Part shown: piece after piece, positions 55,306 to 63,742 of the stretch
How the letters are laid out: every line of letters starts with the position of its first letter
Numbering within the stretch: the first letter of the stretch is position 1
Assembly (NCBI RefSeq): GCF_035581345.1
Contig: NZ_CP141608.1
Span: forward strand, 762,001 to 826,000
DNA: 64,000 bases
Direction of reading: 5' to 3'
From: Pseudomonas sp. JQ170C
Lineage (GTDB): Bacteria; Pseudomonadota; Gammaproteobacteria; Pseudomonadales; Pseudomonadaceae
Position numbers and translations under genes: made by a program
Notes under the pieces: model-generated
Databases searched by the model: none
Told to the model about the DNA's origin: nothing
Seen by the model: only the letters and a program-made list of their open reading frames with translations

Positions 55306-56115
55306 TCAGAAGCGCTCGGGAATCATCCGGAACGGATAGTCGACGCTCTTGTACTGGCCGATCTTGCCGCGTTTGGGCAGCTTGATCTTCTCGTCCTGGG
55401 TGATGTCCTTGTAGGGGATCTGCTTGAGCAGGTGGCTGATGATGTTCAGCCGCACGCGCCGCTTGTCCTCGGAAGGCGCCATGTACCACGGCGCCCAGGA
55501 GGAGTCGGAGGCCGCGAACATCTCGTCGCGGGCGCGGGTGTAGTCGTCCCAGCGGTTGAACGACTTGAGGTCCATGGGCGAGAGCTTCCAGATCTTGCGG
55601 CCATCGGTGATGCGTTCTTCCAGCCGGCGCTGCTGTTCCTCAGGGCTGACCTCCAGCCAGTACTTGATGACGATGATGCCGGACTCCACCAGCATCCGCT
55701 CGAACAGCGGCACCACGCCGAGGAATTTCTTCGCCTGGTCGTCAGTACAGAAGCCCATGACCCGTTCAACGCCCGCGCGGTTGTACCAGCTGCGGTCGAA
55801 GATCACCACTTCGCCAGCCGACGGCATGTGCTGGAGGTAGCGCTGGGCATACATCTGGCTCTTTTCCCGCTCGGTGGGCGCCGGTAGCGCCACAACGCGG
55901 AAAATCCGTGGGCTGACCCGTTCGGTGATGGCCTTGATGGTACCGCCCTTGCCGGCGCCGTCACGGCCCTCAAAGATCACGCAGACCTTCAGGCCCTTGG
56001 CCACGACCCACTGCTGGAGCTTGACCAGCTCGACATGCAGGTTCTTGAGTTCCTTCTCGTAGTCTTTGCGCGGTAGCCGTTCTGCGTCACGGGCCTTGTC
56101 TTTCTTCTTGCTCAT
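55306..56115 (-). CDS. ppk2: Polyphosphate kinase 2
   Basis: A 269-residue PPK2-family kinase, which moves phosphate between polyphosphate and nucleotides. Walker A GRDGAGKGG is at residues 50-58 and the lid/Walker B DRSWYNRAGVERVMGF follows. Short single-domain form. ATG 56115 (MSKKKDKARD) is chosen; the upstream frame to 56211 lacks support. A leftward -10 TATACT (56152-56147) lies between the arms of an 11-bp inverted repeat upstream. Confidence 0.9.
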   Translation of the reverse strand: MSKKKDKARDAERLPRKDYEKELKNLHVELVKLQQWVVAKGLKVCVIFEGRDGAGKGGTIKAITERVSPRIFRVVALPAPTEREKSQMYAQRYLQHMPSAGEVVIFDRSWYNRAGVERVMGFCTDDQAKKFLGVVPLFERMLVESGIIVIKYWLEVSPEEQQRRLEERITDGRKIWKLSPMDLKSFNRWDDYTRARDEMFAASDSSWAPWYMAPSEDKRRVRLNIISHLLKQIPYKDITQDEKIKLPKRGKIGQYKSVDYPFRMIPERF

Positions 56116-56123
56116 GGAGGTAG

Positions 56124-56182
56124 CCTGGTCAGTGAAAGTGGAGTTGAGTATAGGCAGGGCTGTGCCGGGCGCACTGACCAGG
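56124..56182. promoter_or_regulatory. 11-bp inverted repeat flanking the ppk2 promoter region
   Basis: CCTGGTCAGTG (56124-56134) and CACTGACCAGG (56172-56182), an exact inverted repeat separated by 37 bases that include a TATACT-like -10. Confidence 0.45.
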
Positions 56183-56247
56183 GGCAAAGGAAAAGCAGCG
56201 AGCGTCAGCACGGCAACGCGCTACACAGCAGCACCGAACACCGTCAG

Positions 56248-57120
56248 TCACTCATACAGCCACGGCTTCAGCTCCCTCAGGTTCGTCACCACGATTTGCT
56301 GGGCTTCAGGGGTGGGGTCCAGGTTCCTGTGGTCGATCTGATAACGCTGCAATACATACTTCACCAGGGCCCTTCGGCTGGGGACCACCAACTGGCCATC
56401 CACCATGCCGAAGTCGCTTTCGATGATTGCTTTCTGCGGCGTGCTCAGTCGCCCATCGGCAGCGATCATGACCGGTACCTCGGTATTCCAGTCTTCATCG
56501 AACTCGCGGGTGTTTTGCGAAGGATCAAGCAATTCGGGTTGGCCGCGCAGTCGGCTCAGCACGAAGTCGCGGTACTGGCCGTTCTTCTCGCAGTACGCTC
56601 GCACGTGCCAGCGCATGCCGGTGTAGACCAGGGTATGCGGCGCTATGAGGCGAACTTCCACGTTGGGCGTGTTGAGCGACACATACTCGGTTTCCAGGCG
56701 CAGGCCGTCGCGGCAGGCCTTGAGCAGAGGGCGCAGAACTTCCGGGTGGATTGGCCGGTCAGGTACTTCCAATACCTTGGTATGGGCATACGCCAGGGCG
56801 AGCCCATCAATGTGGGGCGCGCGTTCGTTGTTCTGATAGAGCAGGTGCAAATAGGCACTGGCACTGTCATCAATGAACAGGGGCTTGAAGTGCTTGGTGG
56901 GGACATAACCTTTGAGCTGCTTGTCGTAGGCCAGGTTCTTTGACGCATGCTCGGTGATGTAGGTATTGATGTCCTTGGACGCCTGTTGCCGGCTGATGCC
57001 AAAGCTCTGGATCAGGTGCCCGGTGGTCAGACGGCCTTCCCACCAGACCACGGTCTCGATCAGCCTGTAGCGCAGTGCCAGGTCCCAACGTACCTGCTCG
57101 ATGGTGTGCTTGCGTTTCAT
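56248..57120 (-). CDS. WYL-domain transcriptional repressor (BrxR/CapW type)
   Basis: A 290-residue regulator: winged HTH (about 10-75; recognition region TTGHLIQSFGISRQQASKD) followed by a WYL domain (about 125-205; TLVYTGMRWHVRAYCEK then YRDFVLSRLRG) and a C-terminal extension. These motifs match BrxR/CapW, repressors that guard phage-defence operons until a signal is sensed by the WYL domain. GGAGGGG precedes ATG 57120. Forty-eight bases upstream is a two-part motif that also precedes the rightward operon at 58339. Confidence 0.85.
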   Translation of the reverse strand: MKRKHTIEQVRWDLALRYRLIETVVWWEGRLTTGHLIQSFGISRQQASKDINTYITEHASKNLAYDKQLKGYVPTKHFKPLFIDDSASAYLHLLYQNNERAPHIDGLALAYAHTKVLEVPDRPIHPEVLRPLLKACRDGLRLETEYVSLNTPNVEVRLIAPHTLVYTGMRWHVRAYCEKNGQYRDFVLSRLRGQPELLDPSQNTREFDEDWNTEVPVMIAADGRLSTPQKAIIESDFGMVDGQLVVPSRRALVKYVLQRYQIDHRNLDPTPEAQQIVVTNLRELKPWLYE

Positions 57121-57168
57121 TGCCCCTCCCTGTGTGCGGATGCTTGCATCGCAGCACTCTACAACAAG

Positions 57169-57195
57169 GACCTGTCGTAACAAGCGACATATCGT
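57169..57195. promoter_or_regulatory. Two-part operator motif, site 1 (upstream of the WYL gene)
   Basis: GACCTGTCGT, 8-base gap, ACATATCGT. The same 10 + 9 bases with the same 8-base gap occur at 58267-58293. Probably bound by the WYL repressor (inference). Confidence 0.65.
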
Positions 57196-57235
57196 AGAAA
57201 TGTCACAGGGAGAGTGCCTGGCTCAGCGCTAGACG

Positions 57236-57979
57236 TCAGGCTTCCTCAGCCTCGACCTCTTCTTCAAGCTGCAACCCTTCCCACATGTGCCAGACCTCGT
57301 CAGTGACGCAGCGGGAGCGGTTGCCCTGGCCCCGGGGCTGCGAGAAGAACGAGATCCCGCGCTTGAGGCTGATCAACGCTTTCTCATTGCCGGACTTGCC
57401 GTTGCTGCCCACCGGGAAGTGCGGGCTGAAACATTCGATGCCCATCGCCAGTTGTTCACTGATGTCGCTGCGATCCTGGAAGTCCGACTCCCCGGCGCGA
57501 ATCATCTGGCGAATGATGGACAGGTCGATCATGGTGCTTTCATGCCAGTACGCTGCGCAGTTGTAGGCGGCTACCCAGGCAATGTTCGACTCCTGGACCA
57601 TGTAGTTGATCGTTTCGGCCTGGGAGCGTTTGGCCGTGCCGGCGGAGAAGCACGAGCCCAGGACGACGCCGGTGATGTTGGCCGCCACCGACTTGAGGCT
57701 GCACTCGACCATGATGTCGATGATCCTGGCGCCGCCTACACGCTGACCATCACCATGGCCGGCGACATAGACGATGGCATTCTTGTACGTGTGCTTGCTC
57801 AGCGCCGCGAACGCCAACCGGAAGCTGCTCACATCGTAGAAACGAGAATGCAGAATTTCGACGTCATTGGATTGTTTGGCCAGCCCCTGGAAAAAGGGCT
57901 CGACCGAGCTGCGGTTGATATCCCCTTCATAGATGTTCCAGGGGGCTTCCAGAATCAGTACTGCGCTTTTGTCGTGCAT
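57236..57979 (-). CDS. Caspase-like cysteine protease
   Basis: A 247-residue soluble protein with a caspase/CHAT-type dyad: His75 in VYVAGHGDG and Cys110 in VVLGSCFSAG, each after a hydrophobic strand, 35 residues apart. The strand order (AVLILEAPW, AIVYVAGHG, GVVLGSCFS, IAWVAAYN) fits the clan CD fold. No membrane segment or known fused domain; acidic tail. In bacteria such proteases are effectors in several defence systems. Transcribed leftward ahead of the WYL gene, 115 bp apart. Ribosome site weak at ATG 57979. Substrate unknown. Confidence 0.72.
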   Translation of the reverse strand: MHDKSAVLILEAPWNIYEGDINRSSVEPFFQGLAKQSNDVEILHSRFYDVSSFRLAFAALSKHTYKNAIVYVAGHGDGQRVGGARIIDIMVECSLKSVAANITGVVLGSCFSAGTAKRSQAETINYMVQESNIAWVAAYNCAAYWHESTMIDLSIIRQMIRAGESDFQDRSDISEQLAMGIECFSPHFPVGSNGKSGNEKALISLKRGISFFSQPRGQGNRSRCVTDEVWHMWEGLQLEEEVEAEEA

Positions 57980-58246
57980 GAGGTCGTCTGTGGGTCAGGG
58001 GTGATTCGAGTCGGCACCTGCCATCGCAGTGGTCATGTGTAAAGTTTCAGGACACAAGAGGCCTGAAGCTAGATACCAGTCCCTCACTGCTCAAGCGGCT
58101 GCCGGGGAAGACCGATTTCATGGCTTTCAGGCTTCCCTGCCGGGGGCAGATCCTCTAACAGATGATGGCAAAAAGCTATTTTTTGCTGGCCCAGCGACCC
58201 CGAGGCCCGACCTTTTCAGGTGCATACATCTGCATGATTACCTTAC

Positions 58247-58262
58247 CTGTATAAGTCTACAT
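58247..58262 (+). promoter_or_regulatory. LexA-like (SOS box) sequence
   Basis: CTGTATAAGTCTACAT matches 13 of 16 bases of CTGTATAAATATACAG. The left half is perfect; the right lacks the final G. It lies just before operator site 2. Moderate to weak. Confidence 0.35.
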
Positions 58263-58266
58263 TCTA

Positions 58267-58293
58267 GACCTGTCGTGAATTACTACATATCGT
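58267..58293. promoter_or_regulatory. Two-part operator motif, site 2 (upstream of the rightward operon)
   Basis: GACCTGTCGT, 8-base gap, ACATATCGT, 45 bases ahead of the gene at 58339. It lies in the 359-bp divergent gap 57980-58338, which otherwise holds a TTCAGG-N10-CCTGAA inverted repeat (58046-58067) and no recognised gene. Confidence 0.65.
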
Positions 58294-58338
58294 GATCCTG
58301 GCTTGTTGATAAATCGGACTCACGCAAGGACGTAAAAC

Positions 58339-58596
58339 ATGAATATGTCAGAAGCGGTTTCGACAGGGGCATTGGCGCTGATCGGGGTGATTCTGCTGGT
58401 GCTTCTGCATCAGTGCCTCAGGCTGCACGAACTGTGGGAAATGGCCCGGGCCTGTCAAAAGGGCGCGCGCTGGGCACGGATCTGGGAGGCGGAGAACCGC
58501 GAGCTTCGTTCGCAGCTGCGTGCCAATAAGGCGCACATCGAGCAGTTGCAGAGCAAGCTGGTGAGTTTGCAGGCGGTGCTCCCGACGGAGGGGTGA
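58339..58596 (+). CDS. Small single-pass membrane protein with coiled coil
   Basis: An 85-residue protein with AAGGA eight bases before ATG. A hydrophobic helix (about residues 8-24) is followed by a charged helical region (about 48-78, ENRELRSQLRANKAHIEQLQSKL) with coiled-coil heptads. It lies between the operator and the dynamin-like genes, 100 bp from the next gene. Possible roles are membrane anchor, adaptor or effector. Not a recognised family. Confidence 0.65.
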   Translation: MNMSEAVSTGALALIGVILLVLLHQCLRLHELWEMARACQKGARWARIWEAENRELRSQLRANKAHIEQLQSKLVSLQAVLPTEG

Positions 58597-58696
58597 GTGC
58601 ATCATTTTCTAAACTATCCCCTCTTTCTGCCGACAACCCGACTGTCACCTATTGCCCGATCCAGGCCGGCGTTGTCAGACACCAAGGAGTTTCACC

Positions 58697-60805
58697 ATGT
58701 ATGCCTCGCTCATCGATCCCGTCACCCAGGCGCTGAGACAGGCGCTCGACATCGCCGTCCAATTTGACCGCAGCACCCAGGAGCGCGAGAAGATCCGCGC
58801 CGTGCTGCGCAAATTGCTGGTGATCCGTGAGATGCACTCCAGCTTCTTTGTGAGTGTGGGGGGCACCCAGGGCGCGGGGAAAACGCATCTGTTACGTGAG
58901 CTCTACGACCTGGACGACTGGCTACCGGACAACCCCGGCCGTGGCGAATGTCGCCCGCTGTTCGTGCTGGAGCGCGATTGCGAGACACCCCAGGCCTACG
59001 GGGTGGATGAGTGGGGGCAGGAGTGCCCGATTGACCCACAGACGCTGTTCGACGAATTGCGCAGTTTCTCGGCAGGCGAGCAGTTTTTGCTGTTGCGCCT
59101 GTATGTACCCAAGCGCCATTTTGGCGGGCGTGCCGGTTTCCTGCTGTTACCCGGCTACGAAAAGCTCAACCGTACCAATGGCCTGTGGCAACAGGAAATG
59201 CGCGACACGCTCAAGCATGCGACGGGCAGCATCATGGTGACCCACAGCAACGCCCTGGCCACGAAGTCCACGCAGGATGTGCTGGTCGAGATGCTCGAAC
59301 AGGCGCTGCCGGGGCGTCAGCCGATCATCGCTATCGGGCGCACCGAAAACCAGTCCGATGAAGCGCGTGACGAACTGCGCGTCTCGGCGGCACAGGACTG
59401 CCTTGTACCGGCCGAACAACTGGACCGTATTGTGTGTGTCGGTCGTGGCGAGGCGTACAAAGCACGCTGGATACCGCAATTGTTTGAAGCGCTGGGTCGT
59501 TACGCCGAGCCAGGACTGGATGTTTACCACCAGCGCCTGACGGACCTGCGTGCCGTCCTGGAGCTTGAGCTGGAAGCTGCGGTGGGCTTTCTGGACGCAC
59601 TGATCGAAGATGCCGGGGCCACGGCCAGTGCTAGCGAAGGGCTGGTCAGGAAGGTTCTGGAGCAGTTCCGTCGTTCGGCCGATACCTATCGCGGTCAGTA
59701 CAAGAAGCGTCTTCACCAGCACCTGCAGCACTATGCCGATCAGGCGACTGCAAGCGCCAGGAAAGCCTTTGCCGAAGAGGAGGAGGGCTGGTCCAACGTC
59801 GCCAGGAACATCGTGGATTACGTAAAGCTCAAGACCAGCGAAACCGAACAGCGACACATCGAGCGCATCAACCAGCACTGGCAGCAGCAGGGCACACGGA
59901 CGCCTGTGCATGCCATCTACCTGGCGCTGACGCATGTGGCCGATGAGCAATTCCAGCTTGGGGTTGCAGAGACCCTCAGTGAGGGTTCCAACGCGCTGCT
60001 CACGCAGCGCCTGGAGAACCAGCCGGGTCGCTACCTGGGTTACGAAAAGCCTGACGGCACTGCGGTGATACCCAGCAGCAAACTCCCCGAGGCCCCCGAG
60101 CTGCAAAAAAACCTCTGCCTGCTGCTGAACAACACTGCCAGCGAAAACCACCTGGACCCGGCCACCGTGCGCACCCGGCAGTTCGATACGGCGCTCAAGC
60201 ATCTCCCCGCGTTGACGATGGAATACCTGCGCATGAGCCAGGGTATGGCGCTGTACCAGCAGCAGGCGGTCGATACCGCGCAGATGGTCAAATACGACCC
60301 TGACGCGCTGGCCAGGGACATTCGCGATACGCTCCCCGGCTTTACCCAGGGCGCCAAGCAGGTGGGGCGTGCGCTGCTCGCCATCACCGCGGTCGACCTG
60401 GCCATCGATGGCAGCCTGGATGTCATTCCGGTGCTGGCCGGCGGGGCTGCGACCGGTCTGGGCGCGACGTTGTCGCTGGCAGCCACCGGGCTGATGGGTT
60501 TGGGCTTTATCGGCTACAAGGCGGCCAGTTCGGTCCATCACTACAACGTGGCGAAGAGCAATTTTATCGGGGCGAGCATCGAGCGATTCAAAGACCACTT
60601 AGTGGAAGGCAGCCTCGATCATTACGATGAGCTGATGAACAAAATCGAAGAGCGCATTGAGCACAACCTCAGTGTGGCCTATGGCGTGGATGCCAATCAG
60701 TTCTCCGAGCGTGATGCCCTGGCAAGGGCCATGCGCGCGCTGAATGCATCGCGGCGTCACCTGAGCGCCGAGATCGACCGTGCCCAAGCCTCGTTTGTGG
60801 TTTGA
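58697..60805 (+). CDS. Dynamin-like P-loop protein with C-terminal hydrophobic hairpin
   Basis: A 702-residue protein. The N-terminal P-loop is GGTQGAGKT (residues 55-63). The expected DxxG switch is replaced by LLPGYE, so nucleotide hydrolysis may be altered. A long helical region (about 280-540) follows, then a hydrophobic segment (about 558-610, Ala/Gly/Leu-rich) able to enter or span the membrane, then a helical tail. This is the layout of bacterial dynamin-like proteins. ATG 58697 has AAGGAG upstream. It overlaps the next gene by 26 bases. GTPase versus ATPase use is unknown. Confidence 0.7.
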   Translation: MYASLIDPVTQALRQALDIAVQFDRSTQEREKIRAVLRKLLVIREMHSSFFVSVGGTQGAGKTHLLRELYDLDDWLPDNPGRGECRPLFVLERDCETPQAYGVDEWGQECPIDPQTLFDELRSFSAGEQFLLLRLYVPKRHFGGRAGFLLLPGYEKLNRTNGLWQQEMRDTLKHATGSIMVTHSNALATKSTQDVLVEMLEQALPGRQPIIAIGRTENQSDEARDELRVSAAQDCLVPAEQLDRIVCVGRGEAYKARWIPQLFEALGRYAEPGLDVYHQRLTDLRAVLELELEAAVGFLDALIEDAGATASASEGLVRKVLEQFRRSADTYRGQYKKRLHQHLQHYADQATASARKAFAEEEEGWSNVARNIVDYVKLKTSETEQRHIERINQHWQQQGTRTPVHAIYLALTHVADEQFQLGVAETLSEGSNALLTQRLENQPGRYLGYEKPDGTAVIPSSKLPEAPELQKNLCLLLNNTASENHLDPATVRTRQFDTALKHLPALTMEYLRMSQGMALYQQQAVDTAQMVKYDPDALARDIRDTLPGFTQGAKQVGRALLAITAVDLAIDGSLDVIPVLAGGAATGLGATLSLAATGLMGLGFIGYKAASSVHHYNVAKSNFIGASIERFKDHLVEGSLDHYDELMNKIEERIEHNLSVAYGVDANQFSERDALARAMRALNASRRHLSAEIDRAQASFVV

Positions 60806-62717
60806 GCGGCACCGGCAGCGCCATGATTGGGCGCTGCAGGCCTATGATCGCTTCGTCCATGAGTTGGCGCCGGAGGTGAGTGCCCAGCTCAAGCGTTCCG
60901 AACAGGTGACGGTAGTGGTGTATGGCGCCACCCAGGTGGGCAAGACCACCTTGATACTTGATCTGCTGGGGCTCGCCTCCGATACCCAGCAGGAGGTCGC
61001 CCAGGTGCTGCGCGGGGGGCAGGCACGCGGCAAGTCAGCGACGGTGATGCCGCTGCGTTATGGGCGTTCTACGGATGACCACTGGTACATCGGCAACAGC
61101 GCGGCGCTCGACCGGGCCCAGGCCACCCAGGCGCTGGCCGATGTAAGACGGGGTGTCGAGCAGGGCCAGAACGAGGGCATTGTGCTGACCGACATTCTGA
61201 TCCCGGCCAGGCTGTTTCCTTCTGCGGGCGATGAGGCGCTGGAGGTTGATGTCAAACTGATCGACTTGCCAGGTCTGGATGCGCGCAATGCCCATGAGCG
61301 TGAGCTGGTTGCGGCGCTTGCCCGACGCTTCGTCACCGTGGCCGATCTGGTGTTGCTGGTGACCCAGGCCAGTAGCCTGGGCTTCTTGCGACCGGAGAAC
61401 TTGCAGATCGAAGAGCTGGCCAACTGGGTGCACCAGCCGGTGCGTTTTCGGGTGGTGATCACTTCCAGCTACTCATTGAGCAGCGTGCGCAAGCGCATAC
61501 TGGCGTCCCCGCTGGATGTGGCGGCGATGCGGGTAGCGATGATCGAGGAAATCGAAACCCTCGATCTACGTATACCCCCGTCTTTCAGCGATAACGTCTA
61601 TGTACTGGAACTTGGGGACTCCGCGCGGGACATGGCCGAAGGCGACCCGGATTATTATTCAAAGGTCAGTCCCCTGGTTGAAACCTTCCGACGGCAGCTG
61701 ATTAGCGATATCAAACGCTCCAGCGGACCGTTTTCCCGATTGTTTGCTGCCTTCCAACTGGATCAGGTGGTGACGGGGCAGGTCGCGGCGTTCGAGGACG
61801 ACTATCGAGAGCGCAAGGCGTTTCTGGAGGTTGAGTTGCAGGCCTTTGAGTCACGGCTGCGGGCAATGTATTCATTGCATACCAAAGACGGACTCTGGGC
61901 CGCGCTGCAGGAACACAAGGACACGCTCGAAGCGCAATGCGCCACGATCAAGCATTGGGCGGGTATCGTCGAAGTGCTGCTGAAAACCGATTGCCGGGTG
62001 GCTTTTGAATCGCTGTTCGCAGCCCCCGTGATTTCACGGGGAGTGCAACGTGTCAGCGCCATGCAGGACGCACTTCAAAGCGAAAAGCATGCACTGAAAG
62101 AGCAGTCCGAGTCCTGGGTTGACGCGCTAAAAACCTTACTTTTCGATCGTGTGGATGAGAGCGTCAGGCCTCTCTTGGAGGCATTTTTCAAAATGCTGCG
62201 TCCCACCGCTTTTGATGATCGCAGTTTCCATTTGCTGGAATACCAACTTGACGGGTATTCATGGGATCGTTACTGGAAGTCTTCGAGCTATGACGGTGAT
62301 GTGTGGATGTTGGACGTTGCTGTCAGAGAGAGTCGGCAGCATCACATCAAGCTTGCGCACGAAGACTTTGTCAGCGGCTTGCGGCTGCAGGCAACATCGC
62401 AGGGGGAGGCCCTGTCCGCGATTCAAATCCAGTTACAGCAAGTGCAAAAAGCGATTGAGACGTATGAAATCCATCTGGGTGGAATGTCGGCACTGAGTGC
62501 CGAGCTTGACGGCAACATTGCCCGAATGCACGACTCGCAGGAAATCGCCCGGCATTTTGAGCGGCGTGTTCACGAGAGCTTCTCGAATGCCCTGCAAGCC
62601 TCCTCGGCGGAGATCACTCAGGGGCGGTGTGCGACTGAAAAGTTCCTGGGCTTGATGAATGCTCATTTAATTATCAACGAAGCAGAAAAGTTCTATTCCG
62701 GAAAACCCGCCACATGA
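60780..62717 (+). CDS. Dynamin-like GTPase
   Basis: A 645-residue protein with G1 GATQVGKTT (residues 49-57), a Thr in GKSATVMP as likely G2, and G3 DLPG (162-165). The G4 position reads VVITSSYS, not a classical NKxD. The C-terminal ~330 residues are mostly helical with coiled-coil stretches. It pairs with the preceding gene as bacterial dynamins often do (two partner proteins encoded in tandem). ATG 60780 lies inside the end of the previous gene and its TGA overlaps the next ATG, so the three are translationally coupled. Confidence 0.75.
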   Translation: MPKPRLWFERHRQRHDWALQAYDRFVHELAPEVSAQLKRSEQVTVVVYGATQVGKTTLILDLLGLASDTQQEVAQVLRGGQARGKSATVMPLRYGRSTDDHWYIGNSAALDRAQATQALADVRRGVEQGQNEGIVLTDILIPARLFPSAGDEALEVDVKLIDLPGLDARNAHERELVAALARRFVTVADLVLLVTQASSLGFLRPENLQIEELANWVHQPVRFRVVITSSYSLSSVRKRILASPLDVAAMRVAMIEEIETLDLRIPPSFSDNVYVLELGDSARDMAEGDPDYYSKVSPLVETFRRQLISDIKRSSGPFSRLFAAFQLDQVVTGQVAAFEDDYRERKAFLEVELQAFESRLRAMYSLHTKDGLWAALQEHKDTLEAQCATIKHWAGIVEVLLKTDCRVAFESLFAAPVISRGVQRVSAMQDALQSEKHALKEQSESWVDALKTLLFDRVDESVRPLLEAFFKMLRPTAFDDRSFHLLEYQLDGYSWDRYWKSSSYDGDVWMLDVAVRESRQHHIKLAHEDFVSGLRLQATSQGEALSAIQIQLQQVQKAIETYEIHLGGMSALSAELDGNIARMHDSQEIARHFERRVHESFSNALQASSAEITQGRCATEKFLGLMNAHLIINEAEKFYSGKPAT

Positions 62718-63718
62718 CGGATAACACCGCTAACGATGACAGGCTCGCCGCCAAGCAGGATTTGACCGAGCTTCTCATTGATATCCTGATACCCCCGTTC
62801 AAACATGAGATTTCTACAATCCTTGAGGAGAATCTCTATCCTCTGGAAAAGAACATCCTTGATAAGCAGGAGCGCTTGGAGACCCAGGCCGGCAGAGTTG
62901 CACGGTTCATCGCCAAGCATTACCCCGAGCACAGTCCGCCGCTTGAAGAGCAACTTCAAGGCCTGCAGTTTGCCCAGCAGGATGCCGACGCGCTTGCACA
63001 AGCCCGCAATACTGAACTGTTTGCCACCCTGGCTAAGCACACCGAGCAAGCGCAGGTCATTCAACATGGGCTCGAGGGGCTGTCGCAGGCGCTCAAGGCA
63101 GCGGGAGTGAACCAGGCTGCTACCCAGGATCTGCTTCAACACTTGATTGAAACGAACCAGCAAAGCCTTGGTCAGCTGAGCCAGCAGTTGTCGTCGTTCA
63201 TTGAGACGCAGCAGCACGCTCACGCACAGGCACTACAGGCCTTACAAGCGCTGGGCGCGTCCGTGGAGGGTAGGCTGGACGATCACCTGCTGCGCTTGAA
63301 AGCCTATGGGCAGGCGCTGAGTGATAACAGTGAGCAGCGGTTGCAGGAAGGGTTCAGTGAATTGCTTGAACAGCTGCGAGGGCTGGACAAGGAAGGGCGG
63401 CAGCGGCTGGAGAAGTTCATGGTCGTGACTGCGTCCCAGCAGCGCACCGTCGCGCAGAATGTCGCCTTGGCGCAGGACCAGCATGTGCAGACCGTGTTGG
63501 CCGAGCAAGCGAACACGCTGCGCGCCCAGCATGAGGCCTACCTGCAATCACTGAATGAGCTTCAACTGAACCAGCAGGCGCAGCAGGCATGCACGGTGGA
63601 GTTGAAGTCGCAGTTGGACATCAGCCACAAGCAGCTGAAGCGAGTGCTGTACGGTTGTGCGGGGATGGTGTTCGTCGGCGTCTGCGCCGTGATGTACCTG
63701 GTACTGCTCGGCCGCTAG
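62714..63718 (+). CDS. Coiled-coil protein with C-terminal membrane anchor
   Basis: A 334-residue protein, Gln/Leu/Ala-rich with long coiled-coil regions (about 60-305) and one hydrophobic helix at the very end (about 312-332, VLYGCAGMVFVGVCAVMYLVLL). This is a tail-anchored topology with the bulk in the cytoplasm. It overlaps the GTPase gene by four bases (ATGA). Its Gln-rich helices could scaffold the dynamin pair at the membrane. No family recognised. Confidence 0.7.
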   Translation: MTDNTANDDRLAAKQDLTELLIDILIPPFKHEISTILEENLYPLEKNILDKQERLETQAGRVARFIAKHYPEHSPPLEEQLQGLQFAQQDADALAQARNTELFATLAKHTEQAQVIQHGLEGLSQALKAAGVNQAATQDLLQHLIETNQQSLGQLSQQLSSFIETQQHAHAQALQALQALGASVEGRLDDHLLRLKAYGQALSDNSEQRLQEGFSELLEQLRGLDKEGRQRLEKFMVVTASQQRTVAQNVALAQDQHVQTVLAEQANTLRAQHEAYLQSLNELQLNQQAQQACTVELKSQLDISHKQLKRVLYGCAGMVFVGVCAVMYLVLLGR

Positions 63719-63742
63719 TACTGCCAGAGCCCTGGCGGAAAA

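What the first reader, a model, noticed from the sequence alone, without database searches (positions are those of the whole stretch)
56248..63718. Candidate undescribed system: WYL repressor + caspase-like protease + two dynamin-like proteins + two membrane/coiled-coil proteins
Six genes between the core genes ppk2 and ychF combine a BrxR/CapW-type WYL repressor, a His/Cys-dyad caspase-like protease, a small membrane protein, an overlapping pair of dynamin-like P-loop proteins and a tail-anchored coiled-coil protein. Known families: WYL repressors control BREX/CBASS-type defence; caspase-like proteases are effectors in several bacterial immune systems; tandem dynamins occur in LeoABC and the Eleos defence system. 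I know of no named system with all of these parts. Function in phage defence or membrane-damage response is inference.
Basis: partly seen in the sequence, partly recalled or inferred. Interest (0 to 1): 0.92.

Follow-up and report, generated by a model that had tools for sequence, protein, structure and literature searches.

The report
Modular WYL-controlled caspase and dynamin locus
A bacterial chromosome carries a probable phage-defence locus in which a known type of stress-sensing switch, paired with a small unnamed membrane protein and a repeated control sequence, appears to govern a caspase-like protease and a three-gene membrane-acting (dynamin-like) set; the parts also travel separately, so this looks like a mix-and-match assembly and not a fixed six-gene machine.

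The parts
56248..57120 (-). WYL: BrxR/CapW-type winged-helix/WYL transcriptional repressor, 290 aa
   Evidence: Pfam WYL 7.8e-13; PDB sequences: BrxR 7t8k E 2.4e-60, CapW 7tb6 E 1e-43; matches at E up to 1e-60 in 70 of 298 Pseudomonas genomes
57170..57195 (+). operator copy 1 (ACCTGTCGTn8ACATATCGT), 50 nt 5' of the WYL start
   Evidence: a site (up to 3 mismatches) at 49-51 nt from WYL in 33 of 40 orthologous loci
57236..57979 (-). CASP: caspase/CHAT-like protease, 247 aa, His75/Cys110
58167..58183 (+). GGCAAAAAGCTATTTTT element between CASP and operator 2, shared with the split head of G204
   Evidence: role unknown
58268..58293 (+). operator copy 2, 45 nt 5' of the SMEM start
   Evidence: the two copies are the only sites in the 5.94-Mb genome at up to 3 mismatches
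58339..58596 (+). SMEM: 85-aa single-pass membrane protein with conserved coiled coil; first gene of the rightward set
   Evidence: hydropathy and alignment; 28 of 30 SMEM loci have a divergent WYL orthologue; no Pfam hit above cut-off, no NCBIfam or PHROG hit
58697..60805 (+). DLP1: dynamin-fold P-loop protein, 702 aa, P-loop GTQGAGKT; G3 motif reads LLPGY (no Asp)
60780..62717 (+). DLP2: dynamin-like GTPase, 645 aa, P-loop GATQVGKT, G3 DLPGL
   Evidence: Dynamin_N 5.6e-7; weak LeoBC/LeoA hits; motifs
62714..63718 (+). CC: coiled-coil protein, 334 aa, C-terminal transmembrane anchor
   Evidence: C-terminal hydrophobic stretch; homologue in G288 53% over residues 1-189; a third gene follows DLP2 in the six other chromosomal trios and in the four plasmid loci read (117 aa only in L026)
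56160..63738 (.). approximate extent of the insert between ppk2 and ychF
   Evidence: alignment of the flanks to the roughly 150-bp ppk2-ychF gap of G007; left boundary uncertain

Best explanation
This is a composite, accessory, probably anti-phage locus built from three mobile modules under one switch. Module 1 is a regulatory head: a BrxR/CapW-type WYL repressor and a divergently encoded membrane/coiled-coil protein (SMEM) that share an operator. Module 2 is a caspase/CHAT-like protease, carried here between two copies of that operator. Module 3 is a DLP1-DLP2-CC dynamin-like trio fused behind SMEM. Proposed working (inferred): in the resting cell the WYL dimer sits on both operators and silences itself and SMEM-DLP1-DLP2-CC, and possibly the protease. 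Phage attack or DNA damage releases single-stranded DNA, which takes CapW/BrxR-type repressors off DNA (reported for relatives, not tested here), and the locus is expressed. DLP1 and DLP2 then form a hetero-oligomer at the inner membrane, with the tail-anchored CC and SMEM as membrane scaffold, and reshape or breach the membrane at the infection site. The protease cleaves a still unknown target as a separate killing or arrest arm. Shown by sequence: the parts, the operator copies, conservation of the head, exchange of cargo, independence of the modules. Inferred: operator binding, trigger, defence outcome, and any joint action of protease and dynamins.
For: WYL matches BrxR over residues 12-262, including the SRQQAS stretch (that this is the recognition helix is recalled). 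The operator occurs twice here and nowhere else in the genome at up to 3 mismatches; at up to 2 mismatches it is in 14 of 16 genomes chosen for having the WYL orthologue and 0 of 16 without. A site starts 49-51 nt from WYL in 33 of 40 loci. SMEM is divergent beside WYL in 35 of 40 WYL loci, and 28 of 30 SMEM loci have a divergent WYL. Cargo behind similar heads differs: L099, L101, L102, L103 and L107 have WYLs in one 95% cluster but different first rightward genes (L099 and L102 share two later genes). Cargo includes Eleos (L114: LeoBC 7e-166, LeoA 5.4e-177), Bunzi-like and other GTPase sets. In a P. veronii plasmid the operator (1 mismatch) lies between WYL and SMEM and again upstream of a CASP homologue. 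Trios lie next to Shango and Druantia III genes in two genomes, on plasmids, and DLP1-DLP2 on a viral contig; a WYL regulator is within 1 kb in 3 of 6 other chromosomal trio loci. Literature: CapW/BrxR repress until they bind ssDNA (passages of PMC13373217); BrxR-family genes co-localise with defence systems (PMC9122601, passages and one section).
Against: No defence phenotype, operator binding, GTPase or protease activity was tested. The trio of G288 lies at ychF without WYL, SMEM or CASP beside it, so it may work without the head. There are 100 nt between SMEM and DLP1, and the trio may have its own promoter; a consensus promoter scan found none in the region. Operator copy 2 is about 290 nt from the CASP start, so control of CASP is weaker than control of WYL and SMEM. 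DLP1 lacks the G3 aspartate and its model is poor between residues 520 and 613. 7 of 40 WYL loci have no operator match and 5 of 40 no SMEM match; L099, L102 and L107 are among the seven. At 3 mismatches 8 of 16 genomes without the WYL also have a site. The 40 loci are the most similar ones and not independent (21 clusters at 95%).
Confidence: 0.62

Rival explanations
1. One integrated six-gene system: protease, dynamins and membrane proteins act in one pathway, for example the protease activating or cutting the dynamin scaffold.
For: All six share one insert with two copies of one operator. One other CASP locus (L040) has a septin/IRG-like GTPase pair about 4.5 kb away.
Against: CASP and DLP1 were not found together elsewhere: 0 of 12 and 0 of 9 genomes. 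None of 40 WYL-head stretches has either. In plasmids the 3 CASP records and 11 DLP1 records do not overlap. The trio in G288 has no CASP.
Confidence: 0.15
2. Membrane-stress or membrane-repair locus: dynamins and membrane proteins seal membrane damage (an idea recalled for other bacterial dynamins), induced by WYL; phage defence is incidental.
For: DLP1 model resembles mitofusin, IniA and BDLP; two membrane-anchored coiled-coil partners.
Against: Rare and patchy (6 of 298), on plasmids, and next to Shango and Druantia III genes in two genomes; regulator type and other cargo of the head are defence-type.
Confidence: 0.15
3. Chance neighbours: unrelated accessory genes collected at a variable site next to ychF, with no functional link beyond location.
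For: The genes at the 3' side of ychF differ among relatives; one has an integrase-like gene there (L135, by eye). The modules have independent histories.
Against: Operator copies at both WYL and SMEM, spaced 50 and 45 nt as in the intact head; WYL-operator-SMEM conserved in most of the orthologous loci read.
Confidence: 0.08

Closest known systems
BrxR / CapW-controlled defence loci (PMC9122601 and PMC9122588, passages; PMC9122589, search listing only)
   Same: WYL repressor of the same family beside defence-type genes, with an operator near its own promoter and a second copy at the effector promoter (compare R-BOX1 and R-BOX2 of PMC9122601).
   Different: This Pseudomonas head has a small membrane protein (SMEM) across the promoter; the words membrane, dynamin and GTPase do not occur in the text of PMC9122601; the operator is a conserved block and not a clear 11-5-11 inverted repeat.
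Eleos (LeoA + LeoBC) and LeoABC
   Same: Adjacent dynamin-like GTPases; Eleos-type genes occur behind the same WYL-SMEM head in L114 and, by cluster, L095.
   Different: DLP2 only weakly matches LeoBC (4.1e-11, local) and DLP1 matches neither at E up to 1; a third, tail-anchored coiled-coil gene is part of the set.
Campylobacter jejuni DLP1/DLP2 pair (PMC6104087, abstract and passages)
   Different: Partner genes and regulator differ; defence role not claimed in the passages seen.
SAVED-CHAT CBASS effector; caspase-like effector of TIR systems (type IV Thoeris by recall; seen only as a reference title in PMC13373217)
   Same: Caspase/CHAT fold with His/Cys pair; CASP relatives in L044-L046 sit with a TIR-type gene.
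   Different: The window protein is a bare 247-aa protease without SAVED domain; no TIR, cyclase or AAA+ gene among the six.
ietAS (AAA+ ATPase with a protease; the protease type is recalled)
   Same: CASP relatives in L017, L038, L039, L041 follow an AAA+ protein that in L041 matches IetA (E 1.3e-41).
   Different: The protease is caspase-like; no AAA+ gene at the window locus.

Membership tests
BrxR/CapW WYL repressor | Full-length wHTH-WYL similarity to BrxR/CapW | tested here: met
   BrxR 7t8k E 2.4e-60 over residues 12-262, CapW 7tb6 E 1e-43
BrxR/CapW WYL repressor | Operator at own and effector promoters | tested here: inconclusive
   Two copies of a conserved element at the right places; binding was not tested
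BrxR/CapW WYL repressor | Inverted-repeat/palindromic operator | tested here: inconclusive
   Majority sequence holds only an imperfect palindrome, ACACTACATATCGTGT, 6 of 8 pairs
BrxR/CapW WYL repressor | Release from DNA by single-stranded DNA | not testable with these tools
   Needs a binding assay
Caspase-like (clan CD) protease | His/Cys dyad | tested here: met
   His75 and Cys110 invariant in 26 of 26 rows
Caspase-like (clan CD) protease | Caspase/CHAT fold | tested here: met
Dynamin fold (DLP1) | Dynamin-type G domain plus helical stalk | tested here: met
Active dynamin GTPase (DLP1) | G3 DxxG aspartate | tested here: not met
   LLPGY in 25 of 25 rows; DLP1 is therefore called dynamin-fold, not filed as an active GTPase
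Eleos | LeoA and LeoBC proteins | tested here: not met
   DLP2 LeoBC 4.1e-11 and LeoA 4.9e-7, local only; DLP1 none at E up to 1; L114 gives LeoBC 7e-166 and LeoA 5.4e-177
CBASS (SAVED-CHAT) | SAVED domain and CD-NTase gene | tested here: not met
   No such Pfam or PADLOC hit in the six proteins
Thoeris with caspase-like effector | TIR-domain partner gene | tested here: not met
   No TIR hit among the six; TIR_2 E 1.1e-15 beside the CASP relative of L044
Housekeeping locus | Present in essentially all relatives | tested here: not met
   DLP1 6 of 298, CASP 3 of 298

The most novel reading that the evidence does not exclude
Pseudomonas carries a portable defence 'mount': WYL repressor, conserved operator and an unnamed membrane-anchored coiled-coil protein (SMEM) that is kept while the effector cassette behind it is exchanged. 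SMEM would then be a shared working part and not cargo, for example a membrane sensor or anchor that ties membrane-acting effectors (often dynamin-type GTPases) to the switch. In this strain the mount drives a new dynamin-like trio together with a bare caspase-like protease.
Probability: 0.4. Interest if true: 0.78.

Novelty: new variant of a known kind. Interest (0 to 1): 0.6.

Why it matters
It gives a sequence rule (WYL, operator, SMEM) that points to effector cassettes, including unnamed ones; the WYL orthologue is in 70 of 298 Pseudomonas genomes sampled and SMEM is detectable in 28 of 199. It also marks out a dynamin-like trio distinct from Eleos, and a small caspase-like protease family that recurs with several partners (AAA+/WYL, TIR/AAA, KAP). 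Each module can be tested apart. It also corrects a tempting error: neighbours under one operator are not necessarily one machine.

Tried and rejected
Genome-contig scan with DLP1 gave one hit (L002, 30% over 76 residues, inside what looks by eye like a housekeeping gene); taken as chance. The DLP1 matches of G261 (91 residues, one stop), G080 (42 positions, E 5e-4) and G623 (71 positions, a fragment) were not counted as trios. CASP protein P0030 joins the protease start to other sequence that looks by eye like a tRNA-synthetase end; I took it for an assembly chimera and left it out of the alignments. The first operator pattern had the wrong spacer length and found nothing. Viral contigs gave one DLP1 relative and no CASP. 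The consensus sigma-70 scan found no promoter in 56100-58800. PDB by sequence: no relative for CASP at E up to 10 or DLP2 at E up to 1, and only hits at E 0.13 or worse for DLP1. DLP1 and DLP2 show no significant similarity to each other. Literature searches: dynamin/caspase/WYL/phage defence, dynamin/Eleos/phage, WYL/caspase-like/CHAT sets, dynamin-like/antiphage/LeoA, WYL/BrxR/CapW, WYL/ADP-ribosylglycohydrolase, dynamin/defense island/Pseudomonas, WYL/dynamin/phage. In the listings shown (capped) and the passages opened I saw no paper describing this locus, the WYL-SMEM head or the trio; most subscription papers and all preprints are outside that library. Enrichment of GTPase cargo over chance was not tested. 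PADLOC is of 2023, so newer named systems could be missed.
Full report
What is there. The locus is an insert between ppk2 and ychF. In relative G007 the two genes are about 150 bp apart; the right flank aligns well to the window and the left one less well. It is accessory: in 298 Pseudomonas genomes DLP1 matches in 6 (one, G261, only a 91-residue stretch with a stop) and CASP in 3.

The six are not one conserved system on this evidence. Only the window's genome has both CASP and DLP1 in the draws of 298. Of 398 Pseudomonadaceae genomes 11 have CASP, one of them (G495) as a fragment. None of 12 other CASP carriers has DLP1 (that search had no positive control of its own, but the same profile found DLP1 in 9 of 398 Pseudomonas genomes). 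None of 9 other genomes with a DLP1 match has CASP, with G000 and G149 as positive controls in the same search; of these nine, G261 and G080 are weak matches, G623 is a fragment, and G635 and G080 are less than 90% complete. The protein search lists ten CASP proteins at 84-89% identity whose contigs I could not read, so more six-gene loci may exist.

The trio. DLP1-DLP2-third gene recurs in G288 (82% DLP1, beside ychF, without WYL, CASP or SMEM next to it), G211, G236, G007, G537 and G635 (DLP1 frame broken). DLP1 relatives are in 11 plasmid records; I read four, from P. luteola, Enterobacter roggenkampii, Gluconobacter and Klebsiella variicola, and all four have DLP2 and a further gene (only 117 aa in the last, where DLP1 is also split). 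One viral contig has DLP1-DLP2. In G211 the trio adjoins Shango genes (SngA 1.6e-118, SngB 2.9e-184) and in G007 Druantia III DruH (E 0). A WYL-type regulator is within 1 kb in 3 of the 6 chromosomal loci. Homology of window and G288 starts at about 58653, between SMEM and DLP1, so SMEM is not part of the trio. Eleos membership fails.

The protease. I read 15 CASP neighbourhoods. Four have AAA+ ATPase, WYL/WCX regulator and CASP in a row (L017, L038, L039, L041); two have WYL/WCX with small genes (L042, L043); three have a SLOG-like gene, a TIR-type gene and an AAA gene (L044-L046; Pfam was run only for L044, where the SLOG hit is below cut-off); one has a KAP NTPase (L018). Of the other five, L040 has the AAA+ and small genes 3-7 kb away with a transposase between, L021 has the WYL-SMEM head, L047 is a CASP fragment, and L020 and L022 show nothing I could name. 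No DLP1 or DLP2 match appeared in any of the 15. The AAA+ protein of L041 is IetA-like.

The regulatory head, which was not in the finding. A 26-nt element, ACCTGTCGTn8ACATATCGT, occurs at 57170 and 58268 (none in shuffles), 50 nt before WYL and 45 nt before SMEM. In the whole genome these are the only two sites at up to 3 mismatches. Among 16 genomes chosen for having the WYL orthologue (own included; several had already shown the motif) 14 have a site at up to 2 mismatches, against 0 of 16 without; at up to 3 mismatches the counts are 16 and 8, so only the stricter level is informative. WYL matches at E up to 1e-60 are in 70 of 298 genomes, at 87 places. I read 40 of the 86 places other than the window's, taken from the most similar: SMEM is divergently adjacent in 35 of 40 and a site starts 49-51 nt from WYL in 33 of 40. 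These 40 are not independent: the WYL proteins fall in 21 clusters at 95%. Starting instead from SMEM, 28 of 199 genomes match at 35 places; of the 30 loci given (own included), 28 have a divergent WYL match (one only a short stretch) and 22 an operator site. So WYL-operator-SMEM is a conserved unit. In the window, and in G204 with the nearest WYL (93%), the head is split by a second operator; G204 has similar intergenic DNA (by eye, with one identical 17-mer) but no CASP. The P. veronii plasmid has the operator between SMEM and WYL and again upstream of its CASP homologue.

Cargo changes behind the head. Over 40 loci the rightward genes include ADP-ribosylglycohydrolase in 14, dynamin/GTPase sets in 9 (two of them Eleos-type) and Bunzi-like in 2; L094 and L095 count in the first two groups. 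Groups rest on BLAST clusters with a representative annotated, not on every member. No CASP or DLP1 match lies in the 40 stretches. L099, L101, L102, L103 and L107 share a 95% WYL cluster but have different first rightward genes; L099 and L102 share two later ones, and L099, L102 and L107 have no operator match.

How it probably works. Sequence supports one WYL repressor over WYL, SMEM and, if they are co-transcribed, the trio, and possibly CASP. For relatives it is reported that CapW/BrxR repress until they bind single-stranded DNA (passages of PMC13373217), that BrxR uses two operator boxes and lies near defence systems (PMC9122601, passages and one section), and that an unlike dynamin pair tethers membranes (PMC6104087, abstract and passages). 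From this I infer an inducible membrane-acting dynamin arm and a protease arm. No step of function is shown here.

Verdict. Observation confirmed; six-gene system not supported; composite locus under a WYL head well supported; defence role likely by association. Parts that I found described nowhere in the searches named under Tried and rejected: the SMEM-WYL-operator unit, the trio and the small caspase-like family.

Noticed in passing
L044, L045, L046 around CASP homologues: CASP homologue followed by a 552-aa SLOG-like gene, a TIR-type gene, an AAA gene and small genes: a recurrent candidate TIR/caspase-like system (Pfam run for L044 only).
   Followed up: partly
L017, L038, L039, L041: AAA+ ATPase (IetA-like in L041), WYL/WCX regulator and CASP in a row: a candidate three-gene system with a caspase-like protease.
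   Followed up: partly
L104, L106, L108, L110 (rightward of the head): Recurrent multi-GTPase cassette (LeoA-like, dynamin-like and further GTPases) behind the WYL-SMEM head.
   Followed up: partly
L040:14865-17116 and L102:6525-8944: A pair of septin/IRG-like GTPases (46% and 35% identical between loci) occurs both near a CASP homologue and behind a WYL-SMEM head.
   Followed up: partly
L097, and further sites in G030 and G129: Operator matches (2 mismatches) 9-19 kb from WYL, perhaps the far ends of longer regulated islands.
   Followed up: no
window 58167-58183 and L090: GGCAAAAAGCTATTTTT element found, among the loci held, only in this locus and the G204 split head.
   Followed up: partly
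L135: Integrase-like gene (by eye) directly at the 3' side of ychF in relative G009: the site may be an insertion hotspot.
   Followed up: no
L058 (G623) compared with L013 (G211): A DLP1 start (profile positions 4-74) remains next to what look by eye like the same Shango genes: probable trio remnant.
   Followed up: no
L021: P. veronii plasmid: WYL-SMEM head with an ADP-ribosylglycohydrolase-type gene (annotated crystallin J1) on one side and PADLOC candidate PDC-M16A on the other.
   Followed up: partly
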